Shown: positions 6,000 through 59,302 of the stretch, piece after piece
Position numbering within the stretch: the first letter of the stretch is position 1
How the letters are laid out: each line of letters starts with the position of its first letter
Assembly (NCBI GenBank): GCA_037042915.1
Contig: CM073195.1
Coordinates: 2,604,001 to 2,668,000 of the forward strand
Origin: Auricularia sp. M13
Lineage: Eukaryota; Basidiomycota; Agaricomycetes; Auriculariales; Auriculariaceae
Length of the DNA stretch: 64,000 nucleotides
Direction of reading: 5' to 3'
Position numbers and translations under genes: made by a program
The notes under the pieces: generated by a model
Told to the model about the DNA's origin: nothing
Seen by the model: the letters and a program-made list of their open reading frames with translations, nothing else
Database searches by the model: none

Positions 6000-7277
6000 A
6001 TGGTCAAATTCCTGCGCGAGACCATCGCCGAGATGGTCCTGACCGAGGTCGACCACCATCCCAATGCGCCGCCAATGCCACCACAAAACACGAACAGCTC
6101 CATTCCGTGCTTGCCCTTCACGCCCCGGAGCGAACGATTCTTGAAGAAGATCATGCCTATCGAGCAGGAAGACTTCGAACGCAACGTGAACGCCTGTTCG
6201 TCTCCTCGTTCTATTGAACCACTTGCCGTCGACTGACCGGACCCCTAGACCTCGCGTCGCTGCCGCACATACCAGTAGATAGACGCGATCAGCGGCGCTT
6301 TATGCTGCCTGAACCAGGCATCGGAGGTCAGTCGTCGAGTTCATGCTGATCGCATTTACTGATGTCATTGTGCAGCCTGGATTCCACATTTCTTCATGGA
6401 CGAGCACATCCGCAAATACGCCGAAGATACACTGGCGACAGTGCACAACATGGTTTCATTCGTGGATCGAAACGTCATTGTGCATTCCTTTGGCGAGGAA
6501 AAATCTGGTGGTACGTCTAACTTGTGCTGGTTTACAAGTGCTTAACCTTTGTACAGGACCAATGCTCTGCGGCTGGTCTAACTACAATTGGGGCCCTGCC
6601 AATGTTGCGCAGCATCGCTTGGCCGAGGTGAAGCTGGTCACAGTTACTATGCCTATGTGGTGTTTTGCTCCCAAGTGCGTCGACTCCATGGGTTCATGAT
6701 GGGTACTGACGGACCGCGCTCAGAGATATGGCAGACTTCGTCAATATGCGAGATGTTAGTCTATTCCAATTGTGCAGAGTCAGTACTGACGCCCTTGTTC
6801 AGTTTGCCAACCCTGCAACGCTCAGCAACGAGTCCACCGTATCGGCTGCGGTCAAGCTGTGGGCACGAGTTCGTACACCCGCTATTGTGCTCAGTCACAG
6901 GGCTGACTGTATATTAGCTTCATGATTTCTGCTTCCTTCACGATGCACACTACTTCATTGTCTCGACGTACGAGCAATGGACATTCGGCACATTTTCCAA
7001 TCGTGAGCCTTGCATTGCCGTCCGCTATGGACTGTGCTAACTACTGTTTCCAGAATGGAGTACGGCATACGTCGCACCACCCATGCACTTCAGCGCGACG
7101 GGGCCGAATGTCGTCGAGGCGATAATGTGCTGGATACATTCTGCGAACGGGCACCCGAAAGCCTATCCAATCAAGAAGGTTAGCGAAAAGCCCAACTTCG
7201 TCGAGCAACCCCTCCGCTATTGCCATCAGGCTGTCCCCCACCCCCAGACTGCCTACCGGCTTGCATGCTGTTCATGA
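6000..7277 (+). CDS. Lineage-specific family protein, copy A
   Basis: A multi-exon gene of unknown function. The first exon reads MVKFLRETIAEM, then PPQNTNSSIPCLPFTPRS and an acidic end. Later exons give FFMDEHIRKYAEDTLATVHN, CGWSNYNWGPANVAQ, KLVTVTMPMWCFAPK, VKLWARVR, HDAHYFIVSTYEQWTFGTF and a last exon with MHFSATGPNVVEAIMCWIHS, ending RLACCS-stop. The same order, intron pattern and final LACCS-type end recur in four places at 53.9-59.3 kb on the other strand, so the family is real and conserved by duplication. No signal peptide or membrane segment is seen. I do not recognise a catalytic motif. This copy lies about 47 kb from the array and in the opposite orientation, and lacks the clear CTTTATA box of the tandem copies. 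Confidence 0.7.
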
Positions 7278-7357
7278 TTTCCCGCCCCCCGCCTAGCCGC
7301 ACGTCTTCGTCTTCGCCTTCTTCCTACATGATGTTGATGCATTATATGTATTTCTAG

Positions 7358-8194
7358 GTATATTCGGAGGATAATGATCATTCGCTTGATGCGCCTTCAG
7401 CTGGCAGGAAGGGAAAGCGCAAAGCCGACGCAGATGAAGATCATCGAGAGGCCGTATCTAGGGAGTGGAAGAAATTTTCAAGACCTTCGGGTTCCAAGCG
7501 ACGCATGTTCTCGAAGGTGCCTTGGCTGGTGCGTCGATGTTGAAGACAGTAATCTTTGGAGCGCGAACTGATGATCTTGGCAATGGTGCAGGAATCGGTT
7601 CCACGCAACGACATGACGTCCTATCGCGAACCTGAAGCCGCGCAGAATGCACAGAATCCGACAGCGCGTTCATATGTGGCAGACAACATGCATTTCTCCT
7701 GTATGACCGCACCGTCAAATCCGCCGTTCCAACCGCCGTTCATGCCCGCATCCATGGCGGCTGGGCCTTCATCCCGACCCGATAACTCACACGTCGACAC
7801 GCAGATCCCGATGTTCGCTCCGCAGCCCATGCACCCTCCCCACGCGGGGCCGTCCAACCTGGCGGCTCACAATCACATCCCTATGCAAGTCCCGGCGTTC
7901 GGCACTCCTGCGGGCGTCGGTGATTGCCCACAATCTGCCTTTCAGATGCCAGCGTTTACGCCAGACTTTACCCAGTTCCTGAAAGACGCGTCGCTGGCCT
8001 ACAACCCGTCCAACAATGGCTACGACACGATCGACCCGTCCCTCATACAAGCACAGCCCGGCCAGGTGCCGCTTGCTAACGCCGAGGCGGACGAGTCATG
8101 GCAGGACCTGTTCAACAGCTTCTGCGTCGACGGCGAGTCCAACCCCGTTCTCCCCGATCTCCCTCATGGCCTTTCGACATCTATTGCGGCTTGA
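7358..8194 (+). CDS. Companion frame with KGKRKA basic segment, copy 1
   Basis: Two exons (7358-7528 and 7592-8194) join in frame across a 63-nt intron with a CTGAT branch site. The first starts after a TTTCTAG acceptor, is acidic (YSEDNDHS) and then basic (GRKGKRKADADED), and ends MFSKVPWL. The second is rich in Pro, Met and Gln and ends with an acidic-aromatic patch (ADESWQDLFNSF). A basic nuclear-type stretch followed by a low-complexity acidic tail could fit a transcriptional regulator, but no DNA-binding domain is visible. No start codon precedes the first exon: it begins only 80 nt after the stop of copy A. It may be a second cistron with a lost start, or an alternative 3' part of the upstream gene. 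A related exon pair lies at 52.98-53.83 kb in the same relation to another copy. Confidence 0.5.
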
Positions 8195-10389: not shown

Positions 10390-13300
10390 ATGGAAGAACC
10401 GGCGACCCAGGCCCATCCGTTCTTCAACCATCTCACGGCGCTGCTGTCGCTGTACGAGCTCAGCCCGGTGCCGACGAGCGTGCCCAAGTACGATGGCCCC
10501 CACGACTGGCAGACGGACGCCATCGAGCGCGGCATAGCAGAGATGGCGCGCAGAATGCTCGACGCAGAGGCCGCCCTCGCCAACAAGCCTCTGCCGTCGC
10601 GCGACTCGCCAGAGCCTAGGCACAACGGCCGCCCAGGCACGGCCGACTCGCACGGCTCGCTCGACGACGCCCACAGCGAGCGTTCGGCCAGGCTCACGCG
10701 CTCGGGCACCCCCATGAGCATATCGCTCGCGGATCTCCCGCCCACGGACTTTGCGTCCACCGAGGCCGAGTCCAGCGACCAGCCCACGCCCGTGCCACCC
10801 AAGCACCAGCAGCAGCAGGCCAAATCGAAGCCTGTCATATACCAGGACGCATACGGCTACGGCGTCGGTCGGTGTCCAGTCTGTGGGCACTCGCCGCCCA
10901 AGCTCAGGACAACGTCCCATTCTCCCTCAGGCTCGCCTCAAATCGTTCCGCCAGGCCCGCTCATGGATGCCGCGTTCGAGAGCGGAATGAGCGCCGTTGA
11001 GGAGCTCAAACTGCTCAAAGACCAGGTACAGGATGTCGCACGCGTTTGCAAGGTCAGAGCTCTGCCCTTTTTTTCTCGGAGCTTGTCACTCAAGTCGCCA
11101 TCCTGCCAGGCTGTCGCCACCGGCGACTTGTCCCAGAAGATTACTATCCCCGTCCAGAGTGTGGTCATGGTCCAGCTCAAGGACGTAATCAACAGCATGG
11201 TCTGTGCTCTGCGCTCCTCTGACTTGGACCGCTCCGGCTCATTCTGTCTCAAAGGTGGACAAACTCGGACAATTCGCAGAAGAGGTCACACGCGTTTCAC
11301 ATGAGGTACGGTGCCATTGCTCCTCAACTCCTCCATCAAAAGCATGTTCGCTGATGGAATTCATTACCCTCGTAGGTCGGCACGGAAGGGTGAGTGGCAG
11401 CGCAGAGCGCCGTGCTCCACAGCACAGCGCTTCCTTCGGACGGTCCGAGGCGCCGCTAACCGGAAATTGCAGGAAACTCGGTGGTCAGGCCATGGTCGTC
11501 GATGTCGAAGGCACCTGGAGACATCTCACGAACGTCGTCAACAAGCTCGCCAACAACTTGACCTTACAAGTCCGCTCTATCGCAGAAGTCACGAAGGCAG
11601 TAGCCCGCGGCGACTTGTCTCGTCAAATAGAGGTCGACGTCAAGGGCGAAATGCTGGACTTGAAGAACACAGTGAACGGCATGGTGGGCAATCTTCGAGC
11701 GCTGGCTGCCGAGGTCACCGTGTTACACTCGAAGTCGGATACAAGGGCAAGCTCGGTGGCCAGGTCATGGTGCCAGGATTAAGCGGTGAATGGCAAGAGC
11801 TGACCCACAACGTCAGTCGAAACCGTCACATGCATGAGCAACGGTTCTAATGCGCATGCAGGTCAACCGGATGTGCATGAATTTGACAAACCAAGTCCGT
11901 TCTATCGCAGTGGTCACGACAGCAGTCGCCCAAGGAGATTTGACACGTCAAGTCGAGATCGACGCCGAAGGTGAAATCGCGACATTGAAGGACACTATCA
12001 ACTCCATGGTGGCCCAGTTGAGCACCTTCGCCAGCGAGGTGACGCGTGTTACCTTGGAGGTCGGCTCTAAGGGCATGCTCGGTGGACAAGTGCAGGTCTC
12101 TGGACTGAGCGGCGAGTGGAAGCACTTGACGGACAATGTTTGCATTCTCCCTACTTCTTCCGTGGGCGGGTGCTCATCGTCTATTCGCGCAGGTCAACCG
12201 CATGTGCAACAGCTTGACCAACCAAGTGCGTTCCATTGCCGCGGTCACCACGGCCGTCGCGCAGGGCAACTTGACCCGGCAAGTCGAAATCGACGCCGAG
12301 GGCGAAATCGCCGCGCTCAAGGACACTATCAACAACATGGTTGCACAATTGAGCACGTTCGCCAGCGAAGTTACGCGCGTAACCTTGGAGGTCGGCTCGA
12401 AGGGCATGCTGGGTGGTCAGGTCCAGGTCGACGGTTTAAGCGGAGAGTGGAAACACTTGACGGACAACGTACGTTTTCATCATTATGATCGGTCATTTTC
12501 ATAATCCTGACGGGCATGTTTTCAGGTCAACCGGATGTGCATGAACTTGACGAATCAAGTGCGGTCTATCGCAGCAGTCACGACGGCCGTGGCACAGGGC
12601 AACTTGACGCAGCAAGTCGAGATTGATGCTGAAGGCGAAATTGCGGCGCTCAAGGACACCATCAACAACATGGTCGCACAATTGAGCACCTTTGCAAGCG
12701 AGGTCACCCGTGTCACCTTGGAAGTCGGTTCGAAGGGTATGCTGGGCGGACAAGTTCAAGTCGACGGCTTAAGCGGCGAATGGAAACACTTGACTGACAA
12801 CGTGAGTCGCGCTTGACCTCTTGACCTGAATGGAACTGATTGATCCTAGGTCAACCGTATGTGCATGAACTTGACGAACCAAGTGCGGTCTATCGCTGCT
12901 GTTACCACCGCGGTCGCCCAAGGAGACTTGAGCCGCAAGGTCGAAATCGACGCCGAAGGCGAAATCGCCACGTTGAAGGACACCGTCAACCGCATGGTCA
13001 CGCAGTTGAGCACTTTCGCCAGCGAAGTCACCCGCGTTGCCTTGGAAGTCGGTACGATGGGTGTCTTGGGTGGTCAAGCGCGTGTTGCCGGTGTGCAAGG
13101 CGCTTGGGCTGATTTGACGAACAATGTGAACGTGAGTGGCTTTTACGCCAGTATCATCCCACGGTTGATGTTGACTTCGGTGTGCAGAACATGGCGAACA
13201 ACTTGACGATACAAGTGCGCTCCATCGCCGCCGTGACGAACGCCATCGCGCGCGGAGACTTGAGCAAATATGTGGAAGTCGACGTGCAGGGCGAGATGCT

Positions 13301-16300
13301 GGACTTGAAGTTGAACATCAACTCCATGGTCAAGCAGCTCAACGAGCTCGCTAGCGAAGTCACCCGCGTGTCGCTCGAAGTCGGTACGGAGGGCAAGCTG
13401 GGTGGCCAGGCGAAGGTCGAGGGCGTGCAGGGCATGTGGAAGGTCTTGGCCGACAACGTATGTGCTATTCACAATCCGCACCTTTGCGATTGACTAGAAT
13501 GGATTTTAGGTCAACCTGATGGCCGACAATTTGACGACACAAGTGCGCAGTATCATCGAGGTCACGAAGGCCGTCGCTGGTGGAGACTTGACGAAGAAGA
13601 TCGGCGTCGACGTGAAGGGCGAGATCCTCGAGCTCAAGGTAAATATTCTGCAGTCTGCAGTCTTCCTGCATCATTTGTCTGACTGCCGCACAGGAAACTG
13701 TCAACGGCATGACGGATAGTCTGAGCTTATTCGCGGACGAGGTTACTCGAGTCGCCAAGGAAGTCGGTACCGATGGCGTCTTGGGCGGTGTCGCCAATGT
13801 CCCCAACGTCGGCGGCACATGGAAGTCCCTCACCGACAATGTCAACGTCATGGCCAATAACGTGAGTTCCAGGCGCCATAGTATTGGGCTCATCTGACTG
13901 TTTTTCAGTTGACTCTGCAAGTGCGCGCTGTTGCAAAGGCTACCACGGCTGTCGCTCGCGGCGACTTGACACAGAAAGTCACCGATGTGAAGGTGTCTGG
14001 CGAGTTGTTGGAGTTAGTCAACACTATCAACAGCATGATCGACCAGTTGGCCATCTTCGCGGCGGAGGTCAAGAAGGTTGCTCGTGAAGTCGGTACTGAG
14101 GGCAAGCTCGGTGTTCAGGCGCAAGTCGGAAACGTCCAGGGAACATGGCAGGAAATCACGTACGTCCTTGCTAGACCACCATGCACATATTGTCTGACGG
14201 CCTTGAAGAATGTCTGTCAATACTATGGCCAACAACTTGACGACTCAAGTCCGTGGCTTCGCGCAGATATCTGCCGCAGCCATGGACGGCGACTTCACAC
14301 GCTTCATCACTGTCGAGGCGAGCGGTGAAATGGACTCGTTGAAGACGCAGATCAACCAGATGGTCGTCAACTTGCGCGAGAGTATACAGAAGAACAGCGC
14401 TGCCCGTGAGGCCGCCGAACTGGCTAACCGCTCAAAGTCCGAATTCTTGGCTAACATGTCCCACGAAATTCGGTGCGTAGAAGTGCACCGCGGAATTGTG
14501 TTGCAAGGTGCTTATCTGCTCCCAGAACCCCGATGAACGGCATCATCGGCATGACCGAGCTCACATTAGACAGTGACCTCAACCGCTCGCAACGCGAGAG
14601 CTTGTTATTAGTTCACAGCCTCGCACGGTCCTTATTATTGATCATCGACGACATATTGGATATTTCCAAGAGTGAGTCTTCTCATTCGAGCGCGTCTTTT
14701 ATGGTGGCTGACAGTGAGTTCAAGTTGAGGCTGGCCGTATGACAATGGAGCAGGTCTCCTACTCGATACGCCAGACTGTCTTCGGTATCCTCAAGACCCT
14801 CGTCGTCCGCGCTAGTCAGAATAACCTCGACCTCACCTATGATGTGGACCCCGACATCCCAGACCAACTGATCGGCGATTCGCTTCGTTTGCGACAAGTC
14901 ATTACTAACCTTGTGGGCAACGCTATCAAGTTCACTCCCTCAAAACCCGCTGCACGTACGAAGGGTCAGGTCTCGCTTAAGTGCAGATTACTGGCCATGG
15001 ACGAGCAGAGCGTCACGCTCGAATTCTGCGTCGCGGACACGGGTATCGGTATTGCTAAGGACAAGCTGAACTTGATTTTCGACACGTTTGCTCAGGCCGA
15101 CGGGTGAGTCCACATCATTATTCGCTGAATCCGCTTCTAACTATAGTGTAGCTCGACGACTCGAGTACGTTGCGATAAAACCACATGACTTTGATCTGGC
15201 TGACCACATCACAGGAATATGGTGGTACTGGTCTTGGATTATCGATTTCCAAGCGCCTTGTCAGCCTCATGCAGGGCAACATGTGGGTGGACAGCGAGCT
15301 CGGCAAAGGCAGCAAGTTCTACTTCACGATCACCTCGCAACTATCGGAGCTTTCGATTGAGTCTATCCAGACGAAGATGGCGCCCTTCCACTCGAGAACT
15401 GTCCTGTTGATCGACACGACGGGCGACTCCTCTACGCTGTCCAAACATATTCGTGAACTTGGCCTCAACTTGCACGTCGTTCGCGGCATCGCAGAGGTGG
15501 CGGACAAGGACCATTGTCCGCACGTCGATACCATCCTGGCTGACTCATTGACAATTGTGAATGCGCTCCGCCCTGGTTTGTGTTTGGCTAATACGCATTT
15601 TCTAGACCGAGCAGTTGCGAGAGTACGAACACCTGCGCTATATACCTGTTGTGCTCTCCAGCTCGGTACGTCATGACCAGCAACGAACGACCGACGTTGA
15701 CAAGATATTTGGCCAGAGTGCGACTCGCCTCAACTGTGAGCGCCTCGAGCGATTTCTCTCCCCCTAGCTTCGCGCACTGACAAATACCAGTGAAATGGTG
15801 CTTGGACAGCAGCATCTCGTCCGTCATCACCACCCCGGCAACAATGCAGGACCTGTCCTCTGCCATCATCACGGCAATGGAGTCTAACACAGTTGCCCCT
15901 GTTGTCGCTCCCACAGATGTCGTTTTCGACATTCTGTTGGCTGAGGACAACATGGTCAACCAGAAGTTAGCTGTCAAGATCCTCGAAAAGTATGGCCACA
16001 TTGTCGAGATCGCGGAGAATGGCGCACTTGCGGTCGACGCGTTCAAGCAAAGAGTAGCGCAAGGGCGGATGTTCGACATCATCCTCGTGCGTTAATTCCC
16101 ATCGGCTGTGTTTACACATGACTGACCATGCCGGTCCCTCTAGATGGACGTTTCCATGCCTTTCATGGGAGGCATGGAGGCGACGGAGTTGATTCGTTCG
16201 TACGAGCGCGAGCAGAACCTGCCGCGGACGCCCATCATCGCGTTAACGGCCCATGCCAGTATGTATGCCTTCCCTCTCCCTCTTCCCACTTGCTCACGAT

Positions 16301-16908: not shown

Positions 16909-18186
16909 ATGCTTGAAGCACGTCTAGATGCGGCCTCCACCCTCAAGAAGCTCCTCGATGGTCAGTTTCAAGGCCTTAGGAAGCCTCAATCATCCACTGA
17001 CGCGTACCTCTTTGTAGCGATCAAGGAGCTCGTCAGCGACGCCAACTTCGAATGCAACGAAGAAGGCCTGGTCAGTGTTTCTGTAACCAACCGCTGCATG
17101 GACTGACGCGTTCAACTGTGTCTGTTAGAAACTGCAAGCGATGGATAATTCTCACGTCGCCCTTGTTAGCGTCAACATGGACGTGTCCGGCTTCCAGATG
17201 TACCGCTGCGACCGCCCTATGCCGCTCGGCGTCAACCTGGCGTCACTGACCAAGGTCCTCAAATGCGCGCAGGACAATGACCAGGTCACGCTCAAGGCAG
17301 CGGACTCGGCTGATGTCCTCCAGCTGCAATTCAACTCGAAAAGTAAGCCGCGACGCGCATTCGACGCGCCTTCCGAATGGCAGCTTATTGCCTTGATAGC
17401 CCAGGATCGCGTGGCCGACTATGAAATGAAGCTTATGGACATCGACATGGACGAGCTGGGCATCCCCGATACCGAGTACGACGCGCGCGTCGTCATGGGT
17501 GCAGGCGAGTTCCTGCGCATCGTCCGCGATCTGTCCAACCTTGGCGAGTCCGTGCGCATTGAGGTCAACAAGGACGGTGTGCGGTTCGCGGCCGATGGTG
17601 AGGCTGCGAACGGCTCCGTACTGCTTCGGCAGACCGACTCCGCGCGGCGGACGTACGCTAGCAAAGAAAAGGAGGCCAGCAGTAGCAAGAAAAAGGCGAA
17701 CGGCAAGGTGAAGAAGGAAAAAGACGCCGACGAAGAGGCAATGGATGAAGACAAGGAGGAGGACGACGGTGGCGCCTTCAAGGCCAAAGAGGAAGAGGAC
17801 GACGACGAAAAGAATGACGATGACGAGGAAGAGGACGACGAGGAAGAGGAGGAGGTTGGCAAGAAGCGCAAGAAGTCGGGCGGTTCTAAGCGTGAGCGGC
17901 TCCCGTGCCTTTTTGCTGTCGTACCGAGAAAACTTACCCATATCCAGCGGCTAAGAAGGCGAAGAAGGGCGGTGACGACGGCGAGCAAGGCGGCGTTCTG
18001 ATCGACATGACCCAGGCGGTCACTCTGACGTTCTCCCTCAAGTACCTCGTCATTTTCGCCAAGTCGGCCTCGCTCTCGCAAACCGTCGAGCTGAAGATGA
18101 GCAACGAAGTGCCTCTCCTCGTCGCCTACGACTTCGGCCAGGGCCACATCCACTATTACCTCGCGCCTAAGATTGGCGACGAGTAG
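16909..18186 (+). CDS. PCNA: PCNA sliding clamp with a ~100-residue charged insertion
   Basis: Exons 16909-16960, 17018-17070, 17129-17342, 17400-17891 and 17948-18186 encode 349 residues; ordinary PCNA has about 260. The fold markers are intact: [16 protein letters not shown], the interdomain loop [16 protein letters not shown] that binds PIP-box partners, Lys164 in EVNKDGVRF (the ubiquitin/SUMO site) and the end [10 protein letters not shown]. Between SVLLRQT (to about residue 185) and [19 protein letters not shown] (from about 286) lies a lysine-rich then Asp/Glu-rich tract ending in KKRKKSGG and [10 protein letters not shown]. In the human protein this is a short loop of roughly nine residues on the outer rim. 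The last intron sits inside the insertion. It acts in the nucleus as a trimeric clamp for DNA polymerase delta and repair partners. Confidence 0.94.
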
Positions 18187-34982: not shown

Positions 34983-36078
34983 CGGAAACAACCTACTGAT
35001 ATTTCTGTTTGGGATTTTTTTTGGTTGGGACACTAGCATGGGCATTTTGGACACTCAGACACTTTCTTGGACCTTTCTTCCCTCGCATTCACTCATTCAC
35101 TCGCATTCACGACCGCAGTCCCTCCTGACTTGCATAACTGCAAGAGGTTTTTTGTGACATAAACTACTGCACATTAGTATTCCTGCCTCCAAAACACGAA
35201 CACCATGGACAAGAAGAGCGATCACACCGTGCCTGCGAGCAAATAGGTGCAGACTACACTGTACAGTACTGTAGTGCAGATTCCTGATTGCAGGTGTGCC
35301 TGTGCAGATCTCACTGCTGGGAACCATGATTTTTCCGAGCTCATGGAATAGGTCAAATTTTGCAAGGCTTGGAAAACTCTGTTCAAGATTCCACATTTTG
35401 CGAAGCCACAACCATTTGGGCCCTTACCGATGGCAAAAGTTCAAAATTTCCGAAACTCGGAGAATTGACCCGGATTGTCCGAATCAGGCACAACATTGAA
35501 TTTTGCGAACCGTAAAAGCCGCCTGAGCCGGAATTTTGCGAACACAAACATCCTGTTATGTCCGTCGCCGGGAAAATCCTGCGGGCTTCTCCGAGTTTCG
35601 GAAATTTTAAACTTCTGCCATCAGTAAGGGCCCAAATGGTTGTGGCTTCGCAAAATGTGGAATCTTGAACAGACTTTTCCAAGCCTTGCAAAATTTGACC
35701 TATTCCATGAGCTCGGAAAAATCATGGTTTCCAGCAGTGTCTATTAGAAGTTTGCACGGATCGCCCGATCGTCCTTTTTGCACCGGCATTCGGTCCGGCC
35801 TCCGCGTTCTCGCAATGGCAGGCATCGAACGACATTGGGTAAGTAGTACAGCTCCCCCCGCCGGAATACAATTCTTACCGAAGGCCCTATTGGGGTCTGT
35901 GGCGTACCAGCTGACGAATGCGCGGCCTGAGAAGCCCTGAACGCTCGTCACCGACTGAACGCAAGAAGCAGCCTGACGGCGCTCCGAGCACCTGGCCCTG
36001 CTATAACAGCCTCACTGAGTGAGCGGGGCACTCGTCTTATCGTGCACCCTCGCACTCGTCACTGGGACTAGACGCAGT
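34983..36078. other. Intergenic, mostly a MITE
   Basis: Apart from the foldback element at 35312-35739 there is only AT-rich flank. No gene is seen. Confidence 0.6.
35312..35739. mobile_element. CACTA-type MITE with long terminal inverted repeats
   Basis: The left end CACTGCTGGGAACCATGA is mirrored at the right end as TCATGGTTTCCAGCAGTG. The match continues inward for roughly 130-140 bases on each side (for example GCTCATGGAATAGGTCAAAT, and a GGGCCCTTAC block mirrored by GTAAGGGCCC). Both sides are flanked by TCT (35309-35311 and 35740-35742), a 3-bp target duplication. CACTG ends with a 3-bp duplication fit the CACTA/EnSpm superfamily. At about 428 bp with no coding capacity it is non-autonomous. 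The arms are still well matched, so the insertion is fairly young. Confidence 0.85.
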
Positions 36079-52982: not shown

Positions 52983-53829
52983 TCAGAATTGAGTTCCTGA
53001 CGCCTCTGCTGGGAACCCGCCTTGCAAGGACAGAGTCGATAAGCCAGAGTAAATCGTGGTCGTGCTCCTCGTGAAAGGCACTGCGCTGTCGTCCTTCGGA
53101 AGATTAGTCTCGCCGACAGGCTGGGGAAGAACAGCAGGCATAGAGAAGGGCATAGCTGGTGCCGAACCTGCTAGGTTGATCACGCTGAAGAGAGAGGCAC
53201 ACATATCGGCGTCTGCGCGGGAGGGCAGGGGTGCCGGCGCGCGAACCCCGGGTCCAAGGGTGCCAATTGCGAAACCTGAAGGGTCTTGAACCTCAGTTTC
53301 GTTCGGCGGAACCAGGGGCGCAGTACACGGTGCCTGCACCTGTGGTTTGTCCGTCGACAGAACAGAAAGTTGCGTTGGTAATCCAGCGCGAGCGGATAGG
53401 GGAACGTAGGGAGGGATTATCGAAGTTGATGGCTGAGGGCCTGGTGCAGGCCGTCCCGCCAGTGGACCGGTGGTCTGTGAAGATGAATCCATGTGCTCGA
53501 CGCGAGGAGCAGGCAGCCTGCCTGAGGTACCGAAGTTGCCGTAGGCCGAAATGTGCATCTTCTCGCGGACAGGGCTGCGGCCGGGCTCTGCATCATCGCG
53601 GACAGATCCAAAGAAGGCTCTTGGGTCCTGAAACACGGTCTTAAGCAACTAAGAAGAGCGTGCGCATGGGACGCACCTTCCACGCATCTGGAAGTTTGGG
53701 GAATTTATGATGCGTGCGAGTACGCTTCGCCATCTGTTTCCACTCGCAGTCCTGGTCGCCCTTGTCTCGCGCCTTTCGTTTCCCCTTGCGGTATTTGGAA
53801 AAATCATCATGTTCAGATTCGTCAAGTAC
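52983..53829 (-). CDS. Companion frame with KGKRKA basic segment, copy 2
   Basis: Exons 53829-53677 and 53639-52983 join in phase 0. After a TTTCTAG acceptor the first exon is acidic (VLDESEHDDFSKY), then basic (RKGKRKARDKGDQD, MAKRTRTHHKFPKLPDAWK). The second is Pro/Ser/Ala-rich (218 residues, FQDPRAFFGSVRDD to EASGTQF). It parallels copy 1 at 7358-8194: the same ATGTATTTCTAGGTA junction, the same acidic-basic first exon, a phase-0 intron at the same place and a similar total (269 versus 257 residues). The second exons are largely diverged. As in copy 1 no start codon precedes the first exon, which begins 82 nt after the stop of family copy E. The preserved reading frame argues that it is translated, perhaps through an alternative last intron of the upstream gene. 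Confidence 0.5.
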
Positions 53830-53911
53830 CTAGAAATACATGAAAAAGATCAACAATGTGCGGAAGAACTCGAAGATAGAGCAGGAGGAGAATGACGGGG
53901 TGAAGATAATG

Positions 53912-55198
53912 TCATGAGCAGCACGCAAGACGAAGCGCCGCTCGCGGCTGTAACACAGCTTGGTGACAATAGCGGAGGGGGCGTTCAATGAAGTTGGATG
54001 TCTCGCGAACCTTGGGAACTTTGTAGCCGTTTGGATGCCCAACTGACGAATGCATCCAGAACAGCACGGACTGAATGACATTCGGATTGGTAGCGTCGAA
54101 GCTGATTGGCCGCGAGACATATGCTGCTGTCCAATCTACGACGCTAGGTCAGTTTCAACTCGCAAAAGAAAGGCTCGCCCTTACGAGTTGAAAAGGCGCC
54201 GAACGCCCATTGGTTATATGTGCTGACGACGAAGTAGTGTGCATCATGAAGATAGCAGAAATCGTGCAGCTGCAACACCGGTCAGCCGGTCGAACCGAAA
54301 TGAATCGAGGGCACTCACGCGCGCCCATAATCTTGTCGCGGACGAGACTTTTTGTAATTCTTCCTTGTCTTCAGAGGACGGGTTTCTAAACTGTATAGAG
54401 TCAGTGACAATCGCGATAGTCACGCAGTGAACTAACCTGCTGCTCCGCGGTGAAATCGGCCATGTCTCTGGATAAGATTCGGTATTGAGCATGTATAGAT
54501 AACCAGATGTACGCCGGGCTGCATGCTCACTTGTGCGCAAAGCACCACATTGGCATGGCCACAGTCACGAGCTTGACATCCGCCAAGCGATGAGGAGACC
54601 CATGAGGGTGTCCCCAGTTCATATTGGACCAGCCACAATGAAGCGGGGCTTAACCAAAGGCTGTCAGTGCTCGAACCAAGTCGCACAGGTCTGACACATA
54701 CCGTCAGTCTCCCTGTCGAATTCGTGCACGGCGGTGGTCGAATCCATCCTGGCTATGATAGCACCAATTACTTCCAGGATGCAGTCCAAGCATAAGCGTA
54801 TTTGATGGTCGCGTTTGAATCTATCCGCGACACCTAGTTTGCTCATAAGTAAGAAGCGCGCGTTACGAACAGAAGATGCGACACTCACATCTTGGTATCC
54901 GGAACCGATCCTCCTCATCTACTGTGGGATATATTTCGGGCATGTCTTGGACGTCTGGCAGAATGATAAAGATCAGAGTGCTCGATAGAGGGAGAGCACG
55001 CCTACATCGCATAACACGCGAATCGAAGTCCTCCTTCGCGATTGGCATAATCCACTTGAGGTACCGCATGCTACGAGGCACAACCGGCAAACAGATGATA
55101 GTGCTATTTGTATTGTCGTCGGGGGGCATTGGAGGCGCGAGTTTATGAAGTGGGACCGGGGGGATGGTCATCTGCGCGACGATGTCTCGGAAAGACAT
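53912..55198 (-). CDS. Lineage-specific family protein, copy E
   Basis: Start MSFRDIVAQMTIPPVPLHKL at 55198. The first exon carries MPPDDNTNSTIICLPVVPRS and RYLKWIMPIAKEDF; the next begins DVQDMPEIYPTVDEEDRF. Middle exons match copies A, B and D (CGWSNMNWGHPHGSP, DVKLVTVAMPMWCFA, TRLWARV). The last exon reads PISFDATNPNVIQSVLFWMH, then SSVGHPNGYKVPKVRETSNF and an end ALRLACCS. Function unknown; no signal peptide or membrane helix. A CTTTATA box sits about 60 bp before the start. The companion KGKRKA frame follows 82 nt after the stop. Confidence 0.68.
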
Positions 55199-55695: not shown

Positions 55696-56990
55696 TCATG
55701 AGCAACACGAAAGGCAGTACGCTGCTCGCGGCTGAAGCACAGCTTGGTGGCGATAACGCAGGGGGTGTTCAACGAAGTTGGGCGTCTCGGGAACATTGAT
55801 AACATTGTAGGCCTTCGGATGCCCTATCGACGAATGTGACCAGAACATGATGGTTTGCAGGATGTTCGGGCCTCTGGCATCGATGTGCATCGGCGGCGTG
55901 ACATACGCTACGGTCCAGTCTGTGACTCTCGGTCAGTTGAGCGACGGAAAAAGAGGTATGTCCATACGGTTCGAAAATACACCAAACGCCCATCGGTTAT
56001 ATGTGGTGACTATGAAATGGTGTGCGTCGTGACTGGAACAGAAGTCATGTAGCTTCAGACCAGTTAAATATCAAGCAGGCCAGAATGTCGGCGAGCCACT
56101 CACTCGCGCCCAAAGCTCTGTCGGAGCTAAGACGTTCTTCAAATGTTCATTTTCCAGTGAGGCCGGATTTCTGAACTGTACGTCGTCGTTGGTTACCACA
56201 CGATGTGAACACAGAAAAACATACCTCTTGCTTGGCCGTAAAGTCAACCATGTCTCTAAGTGGGAAACGACATGAGGCGACGATGGAAACAAACCTGTGG
56301 CATGCTCACTTATTTGTAAAGTACCACAATGGCATGCCCACAGTCACAAGCTTGACATCGTTTACGCGACGTTGGGTCCCACATGGACCCCAATTTATGT
56401 TAGACCAGCCACAACGCATTGGTGCTTGATCCAGAATTATCAGAGCTCAGTCTCATCGCGTAGAACATTTCACATACAGTCCTTGTCATAGGCGGTGGTG
56501 TACGATGTTATGGCATTGTCCATCCTAGCCATGATGGAATGGGCCAACTGGAGCGTTAAGTCCAAGTGGATGCGGACATCGGAAGTCGTCCGGAAAACTT
56601 TAGGCACAACTGGTTATGGTTGATGTGAACTGTGCTGGCGCGCAAGCATAAGGTGCAACGCACATACTGAGCGTGGTACCTCGTAATCATTCTGGTCCTC
56701 TGGCAAAATTATTACTTCAGGTAGAGCTTCAGCGTCTGGCAGCTGATAAGTACCATTGTATTCGACACAGGCCAGTAGGAACACCTACATCGTCTGACGT
56801 CTGCGCAAAAACCCTCCATTGAGATTGGGATTATCGACTGAAGACGACGTGTACTGCGCGGCATAATGGGTAGGCACACGAGAGTGCTATTGGTGCGGTC
56901 GACATCCTTGGGGACCAGTTCTGACTTTGCAGGCGTGCCCACTTCGGCCAGGATCAGCTCCGCGAGGATGTCTCGAAGGTCTCTTGCCAT
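55696..56990 (-). CDS. Lineage-specific family protein, copy D
   Basis: Start MARDLRDILAELILAEVGTP at 56990, then VDRTNSTLVCLPIMPRSTRR and IPISMEGFCADVRRC. Later exons correspond to LPMWYFTNK-like, ELWARVS and FRTVWTYLFF-position pieces of the family, and the last exon ends PNFVEHPLRYRHQAVLQPRA then AYCLSCCS at 55696. It keeps the full family layout. The companion KGKRKA frame is not found downstream of this copy. The N-terminal part (SELVPKD in place of the PPMP motif) is the most diverged in the array. Confidence 0.62.
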
Positions 56991-57205: not shown

Positions 57206-57511
57206 TCAATTCAGCTTTCTCTTCCTTCGTGGGATATATTTCGGGCATGTCTTTGAGATCTGGAGGTAGGTGAATATCGATGCGCTCAGCCAAGCGAGAT
57301 GAGAACACCTACATTCCCCGACGCCCGCACGGAAACCCTCGATCGGGATTGGTACAATCCACCGAAGATATCGCATACTTCGAGGCACAACGGGTAGACA
57401 TATGAGAGTGCTGTTGGTCTCGTCGTCGATGGGCATTGGTGGCGCGTGTTTATGCAGTTCGACTTCGTGGATAGTCATGTTGGCTATAATGTCTTGTAAA
57501 GACGCCGACAT
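57206..57511 (-). pseudogene. Truncated family copy C (first exons only)
   Basis: Start MSASLQDIIANMTIHEVELH at 57511, followed by MPIDDETNSTLICLPVVPRS, MRYLRWIVPIPIEGF and, after an intron, DLKDMPEIYPTKEEKAEL. Downstream the sequence runs into the promoter of copy D with none of the middle or last exons. A remnant of an unequal crossover is most likely. The preserved frame and start leave open a short product of about 100 residues. Confidence 0.6.
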
Positions 57512-58015: not shown

Positions 58016-59302
58016 TCATGAGCAACATGCCAGATGATACGCTGCTCGCGGGTGCAGTACAGACCGGTGATGATAGCGGAGAGGTTGTTCTACGAAGTTG
58101 GATGTCTCGCAAACATTGGATATTCTGTAGCCCCTGGAATGCCCAACTGACGAGTGCATCCAGAACAGTATGGACTGTACGATATTTGGGCCTTGCGCAT
58201 CGAGCATTATCGGCGGTGTAACATACGCCGTGGTCCATCCTATGGAACTATGAGTTTAGCCCCCACAGCGAGATAATGTCCTTACGGGCTGAAAATGCAC
58301 CGAACGCCCATTGGTTATATGTGGAAACGACGAAGAAGTGCGAATCATGAAGGTGACAGAAATCGTGCAACTACAAACCCAGTTAGATGGTGCTCAATCG
58401 ACGCAGTACAGTTACTCACCCGAGCCCATAATCTTGTCGCCGACGATACTTTTTGTAAATCTTCTCTTTCCAAAGATGATGGGTTTACGAACTGTGTGAA
58501 GCCATTAGCTATTGGGGCACCGCCATACGGTGCAGCTCACTTGCTGATGCGTAGTGAAGTCCACCATGTCTCTGAATACGAGTCAGCGTTCCGTGGCATC
58601 AAAGTATGCTGCGCACTGACTTGTTCGCAAAGCACCACATCGGGAGGGTCACTGTGACGAGCTTGACATCCGCTAATCTTTGACGTGACCCGTGCGGATG
58701 GCCCCAATTCACGTTGGACCAGCCGCAATGTAATGGCGCTTAACACAAGTCAAAAGCCTCAGAGAGCTCGAACTGAACCGCGTGAAAAGAACACATACCG
58801 TCCCACTCTATGTCAAAGTCGTGCACGGCAATGGTCGGATCCATCCTCCCCATAATAGCGTTGAGTATGTCAAGGATGATATCTACGCACAAACGGATTT
58901 GATGGTCGCGTCTGAAGCTACCCGCTACACCTGGCATAGTTATCAGAATTGCTCTCGAATGCGAGTAGAGACTGCAACTCACATCTTGGTATCCGGAACC
59001 TGTCCTCGTCATCCAGCGTAGGATATATTTCAGGCATGTCTTCAACGTCTGTCAGCGGGGGAACGTCAGTGCGCTCAACGCAGGGCCAGATGAAAACGCC
59101 GACATTGCCTGACATGGGCATCAAACTCCTCCTTCGGAATTGGCTGAATCACCCGAAGATATCGCATGCTACGCGGAACGAGTGGCAGACACATAAGAGT
59201 GCTGTTCGTCTTATCGTCTGGGGGCATTTCTGGGGCTAGTTGATGCAGGGGGACATGGTGAATGCTCATCGCCGCAATAATATCTCGCAAAGACGTGGAC
59301 AT
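58016..59302 (-). CDS. Lineage-specific family protein, copy B
   Basis: Start MSTSLRDIIAAMSIHHVPLH at 59302, then QLAPEMPPDDKTNSTLMCLP, IPKEEFDAHVRQC, DVEDMPEIYPTLDDEDRF, RRDHQIRLCVDIILDILNAI with MGRMDPTIAVHDFDIEWDG, LHCGWSNVNWGHPHGS, DVKLVTVTLPMWCFANK, HDSHFFVVSTYNQWAFGAFS, and the last exon DAQGPNIVQSILFWMHSSVG ending AYHLACCS at 58016. This is the clearest and most complete member and can serve as the type sequence. Function unknown. A CTTTATA box lies about 70 bp upstream. Confidence 0.7.

What the first reader, a model, noticed from the sequence alone, without database searches (positions are those of the whole stretch)
7358..8194. A KGKRKA frame follows the family gene at two distant loci: a two-part unit
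At 7.36-8.19 kb and, inverted, at 52.98-53.83 kb, an exon pair with an acidic start, a KGKRKA basic stretch and a Pro-rich second exon begins about 80 nt after the stop of a family gene. Both have the ATGTATTTCTAGGTA junction, a phase-0 intron in the same place and similar total length, while sequence elsewhere has diverged. Neither has its own start codon. Either the family gene has an alternative last intron producing a longer protein with a nuclear-type tail, or the pair is a second cistron with a hidden start. Retention of the frame at both loci argues for function.
Basis: inference. Interest (0 to 1): 0.75.

Follow-up and report, generated by a model that had tools for sequence, protein, structure and literature searches.

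The report
Fungal gene with switchable tail
Two copies of an uncharacterised fungal gene carry, just past their normal end, a second spliced coding tail with a nuclear-import-like motif that looks kept by selection, so each gene probably makes two proteins with different ends by alternative splicing, although no RNA evidence was available.

Summary
At both loci a two-exon frame starts 80/82 nt after the stop of a family gene, behind an identical 15-mer found only twice in the 52-Mb genome. The first tail exon (RKGKRKA) evolves as protein: pN 0.38 against pS 0.87, versus 0.65/0.67 in a wrong frame; 0 of 500 codon shuffles match its pN. No in-frame ATG precedes the motif, and readthrough or frameshifting is not a shared mechanism because the frame offset differs. 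Splicing from upstream is therefore required. Acceptor and branch elements are alike at both loci. The best donor of exon 8 in both genes is a phase-0 AAG|GTTNGC at the same aligned place; removing 179/181 nt takes out the usual end (...CCS, stop). This donor match is only suggestive (1935 of 20000 recodings). The CCS end is itself conserved. Best reading: one gene, two C-termini: a short CCS form (310/306 aa) and a 535/539-aa form with a basic, Pro-rich tail. Two neighbouring paralogues keep CCS and lack the tail. No curated family or IMG/VR relative was found. No transcript data were available.

The parts
6000..7277 (+). Family gene A, 8 exons (6000-6195, 6249-6326, 6376-6510, 6557-6674, 6724-6754, 6803-6868, 6918-7002, 7054-7277), 310 aa, ends ...RLACCS*
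   Evidence: exon structure matches copies B, C, D; 48-52% identity to them
7179..7357 (+). Proposed alternative intron of A (179 nt): donor AAG|GTTAGC, phase 0, acceptor TTCTAG|GTA; contains the CCS* end
   Evidence: only phase-0 GT scoring >=3.8 in the spliced CDS of A; acceptor 5.6, YTRAY 20 nt upstream; length
7346..7360 (+). ATGTATTTCTAGGTA junction, unique to the two loci
7358..7528 (+). Exon 9 of A: acidic start, RKGKRKA, 57 codons
7592..8194 (+). Exon 10 of A: Pro-rich, acidic/aromatic end (ESWQDLFNSF), 200 codons + stop
53912..55198 (-). Family gene B, 8 exons, 306 aa, ends ...RLACCS*
53830..54010 (-). Proposed alternative intron of B (181 nt): donor AAG|GTTCGC, phase 0, acceptor TTCTAG|GTA
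53827..53841 (-). ATGTATTTCTAGGTA junction
53677..53829 (-). Exon 9 of B: acidic start, RKGKRKA, 51 codons
52983..53627 (-). Exon 10 of B: Pro-rich, 214 codons + stop
55696..56990 (-). Family gene C, 8 exons, 310 aa, ends ...LSCCS*; no tail within about 490 nt downstream
58016..59302 (-). Family gene D, 8 exons, 308 aa, ends ...LACCS*; closest to B (72.5%); no tail within about 500 nt downstream
57217..57511 (-). Truncated 5' fragment of a fifth family copy (exon 1 and part of exon 2); limits approximate, read by eye

Best explanation
The pair is the alternative 3' end of the family gene itself. One transcription unit gives two proteins. If the 179/181-nt stretch at the end of exon 8 stays in, translation ends at ...LACCS* (310/306 aa). 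If it is spliced out (donor AAG|GTTNGC in exon 8, acceptor TTCTAG|GTA), the same core is joined in frame to exons 9-10 and becomes a 535/539-aa protein whose tail carries an acidic stretch, the basic RKGKRKA motif and a Pro-rich region, most likely a nuclear form. Shown from sequence: exon structures, coding selection on exon 9 and on the CCS end, acceptor anatomy, absence of a usable start in exon 9. Inferred: the exact donor, that both RNAs are made, nuclear location, any role of the CCS cysteines.
For: Exon 9 A vs B: pN 0.38, pS 0.87; out-of-frame control 0.65/0.67; 0 of 500 codon shuffles reach its pN. RKGKRKA: 7 nt differences in 21, all synonymous; 0 of 200000 random placements of 7 changes keep the peptide (the block was chosen for its identity, so this overstates). 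CCS end (last 32 codons) A vs B: pN 0.17 against 0.34 for the core. Acceptor scores 5.6 at both loci, inside the leave-one-out range of 28 family acceptors, each with a YTRAY element at the same distance of 20 nt. The best-scoring donor of exon 8 in both genes is at the same aligned offset, phase 0 as exon 9 requires. Fused frames are open: 535 and 539 aa. The stop-to-exon-9 distance of 80 vs 82 nt rules out a common readthrough or frameshift. Alternative splicing is common in mushroom-forming fungi: intron retention is the commonest event in Schizophyllum (PMC5034255, abstract); 25.2% of transcribed loci in Plicaturopsis (PMC4503453, section 7).
Against: No transcript data. Donor: synonymous recoding of exon 8 gives a shared phase-0 donor this good in 1935 of 20000 trials (4019 in any phase), and D, which lacks the tail, also scores 5.9 there. 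179/181 nt is far longer than the 28 constitutive introns of the family (46-63 nt). The acceptor ranks second of the AGs scanned at both loci: 7461 (5.9, inside exon 9 of A) and 53948 (7.6, inside the CCS end of B) score higher, though without a YTRAY in the 40 nt before them. A branch distance of 20 nt lies outside the main range of the real introns (10-18, one further element at 26). No unusual RNA fold in the stretch (z -0.85, -0.48). Exon 10 is barely conserved. Codon-usage scoring did not discriminate.
Confidence: 0.6

Rival explanations
1. Same idea, other junction: exon 9 is joined from a GC-AG donor right before the ACCS codons (CTT|GCATGC in A, CTT|GCGTGC in B; 95/97-nt introns, phase 0), so that only ACCS is swapped, or from the phase-0 donors of exon 5 or 6 by exon skipping.
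For: GC donors aligned in A and B, phase 0, scoring 5.8/5.7 when scored as GT; GC-AG is 1.85% of introns in Ganoderma lingzhi (PMC11590231, passages); exons 5 and 6 end in phase 0 (exon lengths).
Against: GCN-TGY follows automatically from the conserved Ala-Cys; the exon side CTT lacks the usual AG; D, without a tail, scores 7.0 at the same place; exon skipping is only 1% of coding-region events in Schizophyllum (PMC5034255 abstract).
Confidence: 0.15
2. Exons 9-10 are the end of a separate gene whose first coding exon and promoter lie inside or upstream of the family gene.
For: The tail is a self-contained spliced coding unit; co-transcribed neighbouring genes involve up to 8% of transcribed genes in some Agaricomycetes (PMC4503453 abstract).
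Against: No in-frame ATG before RKGKRKA in exon 9 and a TAG immediately upstream in frame; the only aligned donor shared by A and B in exon 8 with both scores >=3.8 is in the family frame (exons upstream of exon 8 were not aligned for this).
Confidence: 0.15
3. A decaying leftover of an older longer gene: the family once had the tail, now ends at CCS, and A and B keep fossils.
For: C and D lack the tail; exon 10 has diverged strongly.
Against: Both frames are open over 774 and 798 coding nt with usable splice sites although A-B synonymous sites are saturated; exon 9 pN is well below pS.
Confidence: 0.07
4. Stop-codon readthrough or frameshifting from CCS* into the tail.
For: The tail follows closely behind the stop at both loci.
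Against: The tail frame relative to the stop differs between loci (80 vs 82 nt), and a further TAG precedes exon 9 in its own frame.
Confidence: 0.02

Closest known systems
[quoted passage not shown] 2012, as cited in PMC3798809; passages seen; the 2012 paper itself not seen)
   Same: A basidiomycete gene in which alternative splicing adds a C-terminal extension with a different targeting
   Different: There the added end targets a known enzyme to peroxisomes; here it is a tail of about 260 aa with a basic motif on an uncharacterised family, and the alternative CCS end is itself conserved; not demonstrated by RNA here
Alternatively spliced genes of Schizophyllum commune with changed predicted location (PMC5034255, abstract and section 8)
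   Same: Intron retention is the commonest event; transcripts of 71 genes have different predicted localisation signals
   Different: No homologous gene was looked for or identified there; here two paralogues share the same arrangement
Polycistronic transcripts of Agaricomycetes (PMC4503453 abstract; PMC11590231 abstract)
   Same: Adjacent coding parts on one strand, close together
   Different: The second part here has no start codon of its own before its conserved motif, so it does not look like a cistron

Membership tests
C-terminal switch by alternative splicing in fungi (U. maydis GAPDH type) | Same core, two open C-terminal reading frames reachable by splice choice | tested here: met
   fused frames 535 and 539 aa without stops; short frames 310 and 306 aa
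C-terminal switch by alternative splicing in fungi (U. maydis GAPDH type) | Both ends under protein-level selection | tested here: met
   A vs B: CCS end pN 0.17 / pS 0.76, exon 9 pN 0.38 / pS 0.87; exon 10 weak
C-terminal switch by alternative splicing in fungi (U. maydis GAPDH type) | Functional donor and acceptor for the alternative intron | tested here: inconclusive
   acceptor plausible at both loci; donor plausible but 9.7% by chance (1935 of 20000)
C-terminal switch by alternative splicing in fungi (U. maydis GAPDH type) | Both transcripts present and different protein location | not testable with these tools
   no RNA or imaging data held
Bicistronic fungal transcript | Second coding region with its own start codon | tested here: not met
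   the only in-frame ATG of exon 9 lies after RKGKRKA at both loci; TAG just upstream in frame
Known protein domain family | Match to Pfam-A, NCBIfam, or solved structures | tested here: not met
   Family A-D: Pfam only DUF4372 (E 0.028, 1 of 4 members) and 2L_N_poxvirus (E 0.058, 13.6 bits against a cut-off of 27); NCBIfam none. Tails A and B: no Pfam match at E<=1. PDB: the profile matches yeast Nup85 at residues 8-122 with E 0.0025, D alone with E 0.09; weak and unresolved, not taken as membership

The most novel reading that the evidence does not exclude
An uncharacterised fungal family uses one retained or removed intron to choose between a conserved cysteine end (CCS, possibly lipid-modified) and a nuclear, regulator-like tail. 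The switch predates the duplications in this locus, and neighbouring copies then specialised by losing the nuclear option.
Probability: 0.3. Interest if true: 0.6.

Novelty: new member of a known kind. Interest (0 to 1): 0.42.

Why it matters
If true, a standard gene model that stops at CCS* misses about two fifths of two proteins. It would be an example in a mushroom-type fungus of a splice switch that changes the C-terminus, with natural copies lacking it as controls. It gives a handle on a family with no known domain: two loci with the switch, two without, in one 64-kb window.

Tried and rejected
Structure-family guesses: a PD-(D/E)XK-like reading of the LHDFCYLHDAHYFVVSTYNQWAFGAFS stretch was a lead from memory; Pfam, NCBIfam and a PDB profile search gave nothing to support it. 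The one PDB match, yeast Nup85 over residues 8-122 (profile E 0.0025; single protein D E 0.09; all seven listed chains are Nup85), is weak, is not in the stretch discussed here and was left unresolved. Relatives elsewhere: the IMG/VR scan with two peptide patterns found none (59 pattern matches, none confirmed). A mating-regulator (Clp1) idea from memory was searched in papers (listing only) and not pursued, since nothing linked it to these sequences.

Codon-usage scoring: with 20 training ORFs (6140 codons) the family genes themselves score near zero (-0.04 to 0.11). The tail frame is the best of six for A10, B9 and B10 and tied for A9, but by small margins, so I do not use it. An earlier version trained on the family and PCNA is circular for the family; there B10 was best of six but negative. 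RNA folding of the proposed introns was unremarkable. A bacterial-type promoter/terminator scan found nothing and is not meaningful for a fungus. The whole-genome search with each tail finds only itself, not even the other tail (E<=10), so other diverged tails could have been missed. One search used a start off by one base for exon 9 of B; one search replaces it. One search prints a wrong acceptor distance for B (region cut short); one search gives 181 nt. One search had one wrong intron end, mended. One search failed on a file name and was rerun.

Full report
What is there. The window is part of a 52.1-Mb, 14-contig genome, C3:2604001-2668000. Short introns (46-63 nt in this family) point to a mushroom-type basidiomycete; this is an inference and the species was not identified. 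Four intact members of one gene family lie in the window: A (6000-7277, +), B (53912-55198, -), C (55696-56990, -) and D (58016-59302, -), plus a truncated fifth copy (57511 to about 57217, by eye). Each intact copy has eight exons in the same arrangement, and all four end in L(A/S)CCS and a stop. B and D are closest (72.5% identity); the other five pairs are 48-53%. Elsewhere in the genome the only relative I credit is one gene on C10 (about 465.2-466.8 kb; E 0.004 from B; 7.5e-5 to 0.013 back to the four copies). By eye its last three introns fall at the same places as introns 5-7 of the family; it has a different long acidic tail and lacks CCS. First-look limits make these searches lower bounds.

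The second part. Behind A and B, 80 and 82 nt after the stop, begins a frame of 57/51 codons, then a phase-0 intron of 63/49 nt with donor GTGCGT, then 200/214 codons to a stop. The junction ATGTATTTCTAGGTA is found only at these two places in the genome. The degenerate KGKRKA pattern matches 17 places on both strands (7 for the pattern read backwards); 16 of the 17 read KGKRKA and one KGKSKA, so the same motif at the same position behind both genes is unlikely to be a random draw. Downstream of C and D (about 490 nt each) neither exon 9 peptide scores above shuffles (112 to 264 of 300 shuffles reach the score), while the same test finds B's exon behind A and A's behind B (0 of 300 each).

Is it coding? 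Exon 9: 20 of 49 aligned residues identical; global score 42 against a shuffle maximum of 27 (0 of 2000), local score 52 reached by 4 of 2000, and only the 0/0 frame pairing scores. Nonsynonymous differences are far below synonymous ones (pN 0.38, pS 0.87), while an out-of-frame control shows no gap (0.65/0.67). Codon-shuffled controls never reach the observed pN (0 of 500). Within RKGKRKA six of seven codons differ, all synonymously (this block was picked because it is identical). Exon 10 is weaker: 53 of 164 aligned residues identical, 4 of 500 shuffles reach its pN, and its alignment score is not significant (321 of 2000 local, 593 of 2000 global). Stop-free runs of that length appear in 106 of 2000 (A) and 53 of 2000 (B) Markov resamples; exon 9 frames stay open in 10% and 13%.

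How is it reached? The only in-frame ATG of exon 9 comes after RKGKRKA at both loci, and a TAG stands immediately before exon 9 in its own frame. The distance from the family stop to exon 9 differs by two bases, so readthrough or frameshifting cannot be shared. Splicing remains. The acceptor TTCTAG scores 5.6 at both loci, within the leave-one-out range of 28 family acceptors (-1.9 to 8.5), and both have a YTRAY element 20 nt upstream (21 of 28 real introns have one in their last 30 nt, mostly at 10-18); one other AG scores higher at each locus, inside coding sequence and without such an element. Exon 9 needs a phase-0 donor. In A the only phase-0 GT scoring at least 3.8 in the whole coding sequence is AAG|GTTAGC at 7179. 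In B there are two, and the better, AAG|GTTCGC at 54010, is at the same aligned place. True donors score 2.3 to 10.3 in leave-one-out tests; 7 of 28 lie below 5.2. Against this: synonymous recoding gives such a shared phase-0 donor in 1935 of 20000 trials, and D has a similar score there without a tail. The proposed introns are 179 and 181 nt, well above the 46-63 nt of the 28 normal ones.

Both ends matter. The last 32 codons, all inside the stretch that the splice would remove, are more conserved between A and B than the core (pN 0.17 vs 0.34). The same holds for five of the six pairs; in B-D the two are equal within error (0.16 vs 0.15). The end is not extreme, though: 33 of 272 overlapping 32-codon windows of the A-B alignment are as low or lower. 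C and D keep the same end without a tail. So the CCS form is not an artefact, and the most economical reading is a choice of C-termini. Because B is closest to D yet shares the tail with A, the tail was probably present in the common ancestor and lost in D and in C (inference from identities; no tree was built).

What it might do. The short form ends in cysteines of the kind that can be lipid-modified; the long form carries a basic motif of the kind that can direct nuclear import, followed by a Pro-rich region that in A ends with an acidic/aromatic stretch. These motif readings are recalled, not tested. The core matches no curated family; a weak PDB profile match to yeast Nup85 (E 0.0025, residues 8-122; E 0.09 for D alone) is unresolved. 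Precedent exists: in Ustilago maydis a C-terminally extended GAPDH comes from an alternatively spliced transcript (PMC3798809, passages), and alternative splicing is frequent in mushroom fungi (PMC5034255 abstract and section 8; PMC4503453 abstract and section 7; PMC11590231 abstract and passages).

Verdict. Seven paper searches ran; most were on fungal splicing in general, and no listed title or abstract start describes this family. They do not show that it is unpublished.

Noticed in passing
window 57217-57511 (-): Truncated fifth family copy (exon 1 and part of exon 2) between C and D, probably a pseudogene fragment of the tandem array.
   Followed up: partly
L027 (C10:463000-468500), gene on - strand about 465.2-466.8 kb: Distant homologue of the family with introns at the same last three positions (by eye) and a long acidic tail in place of CCS.
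   Followed up: partly
window 53912-54010 (-) against 55696-55794 and 58016-58114 (-): In the last 32 codons synonymous divergence is lower than in the core for B-C (pS 0.37 vs 0.66) and B-D (0.43 vs 0.58) but not for A pairs; few sites (about 24), cause unknown (nucleotide constraint or gene conversion).
   Followed up: no
window 6000-6600 (+) and related N-termini: Weak profile match of the family's residues 8-122 to yeast nucleoporin Nup85 (E 0.0025; E 0.09 for D alone).
   Followed up: partly
window 35312-35739: Inverted repeat with 169-nt arms, 93% complementary, 90 nt apart; possibly a small mobile element.
   Followed up: no
window 11558-14119 (+): About eight repeats of roughly 330 nt that look like the repeated region of a fungal group III histidine kinase (label recalled, not searched).
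   Followed up: no
window 17141-18001 (+): PCNA coding region (Pfam PCNA_N and PCNA_C) whose frame runs into an acidic Asp/Glu-rich stretch.
   Followed up: no
window 7277-7529 and 53912-53676: If the short form keeps exons 9-10 as 3' UTR, the exon 9/10 intron lies about 250/235 nt past its stop, which could expose it to nonsense-mediated decay unless it is polyadenylated before exon 9.
   Followed up: no
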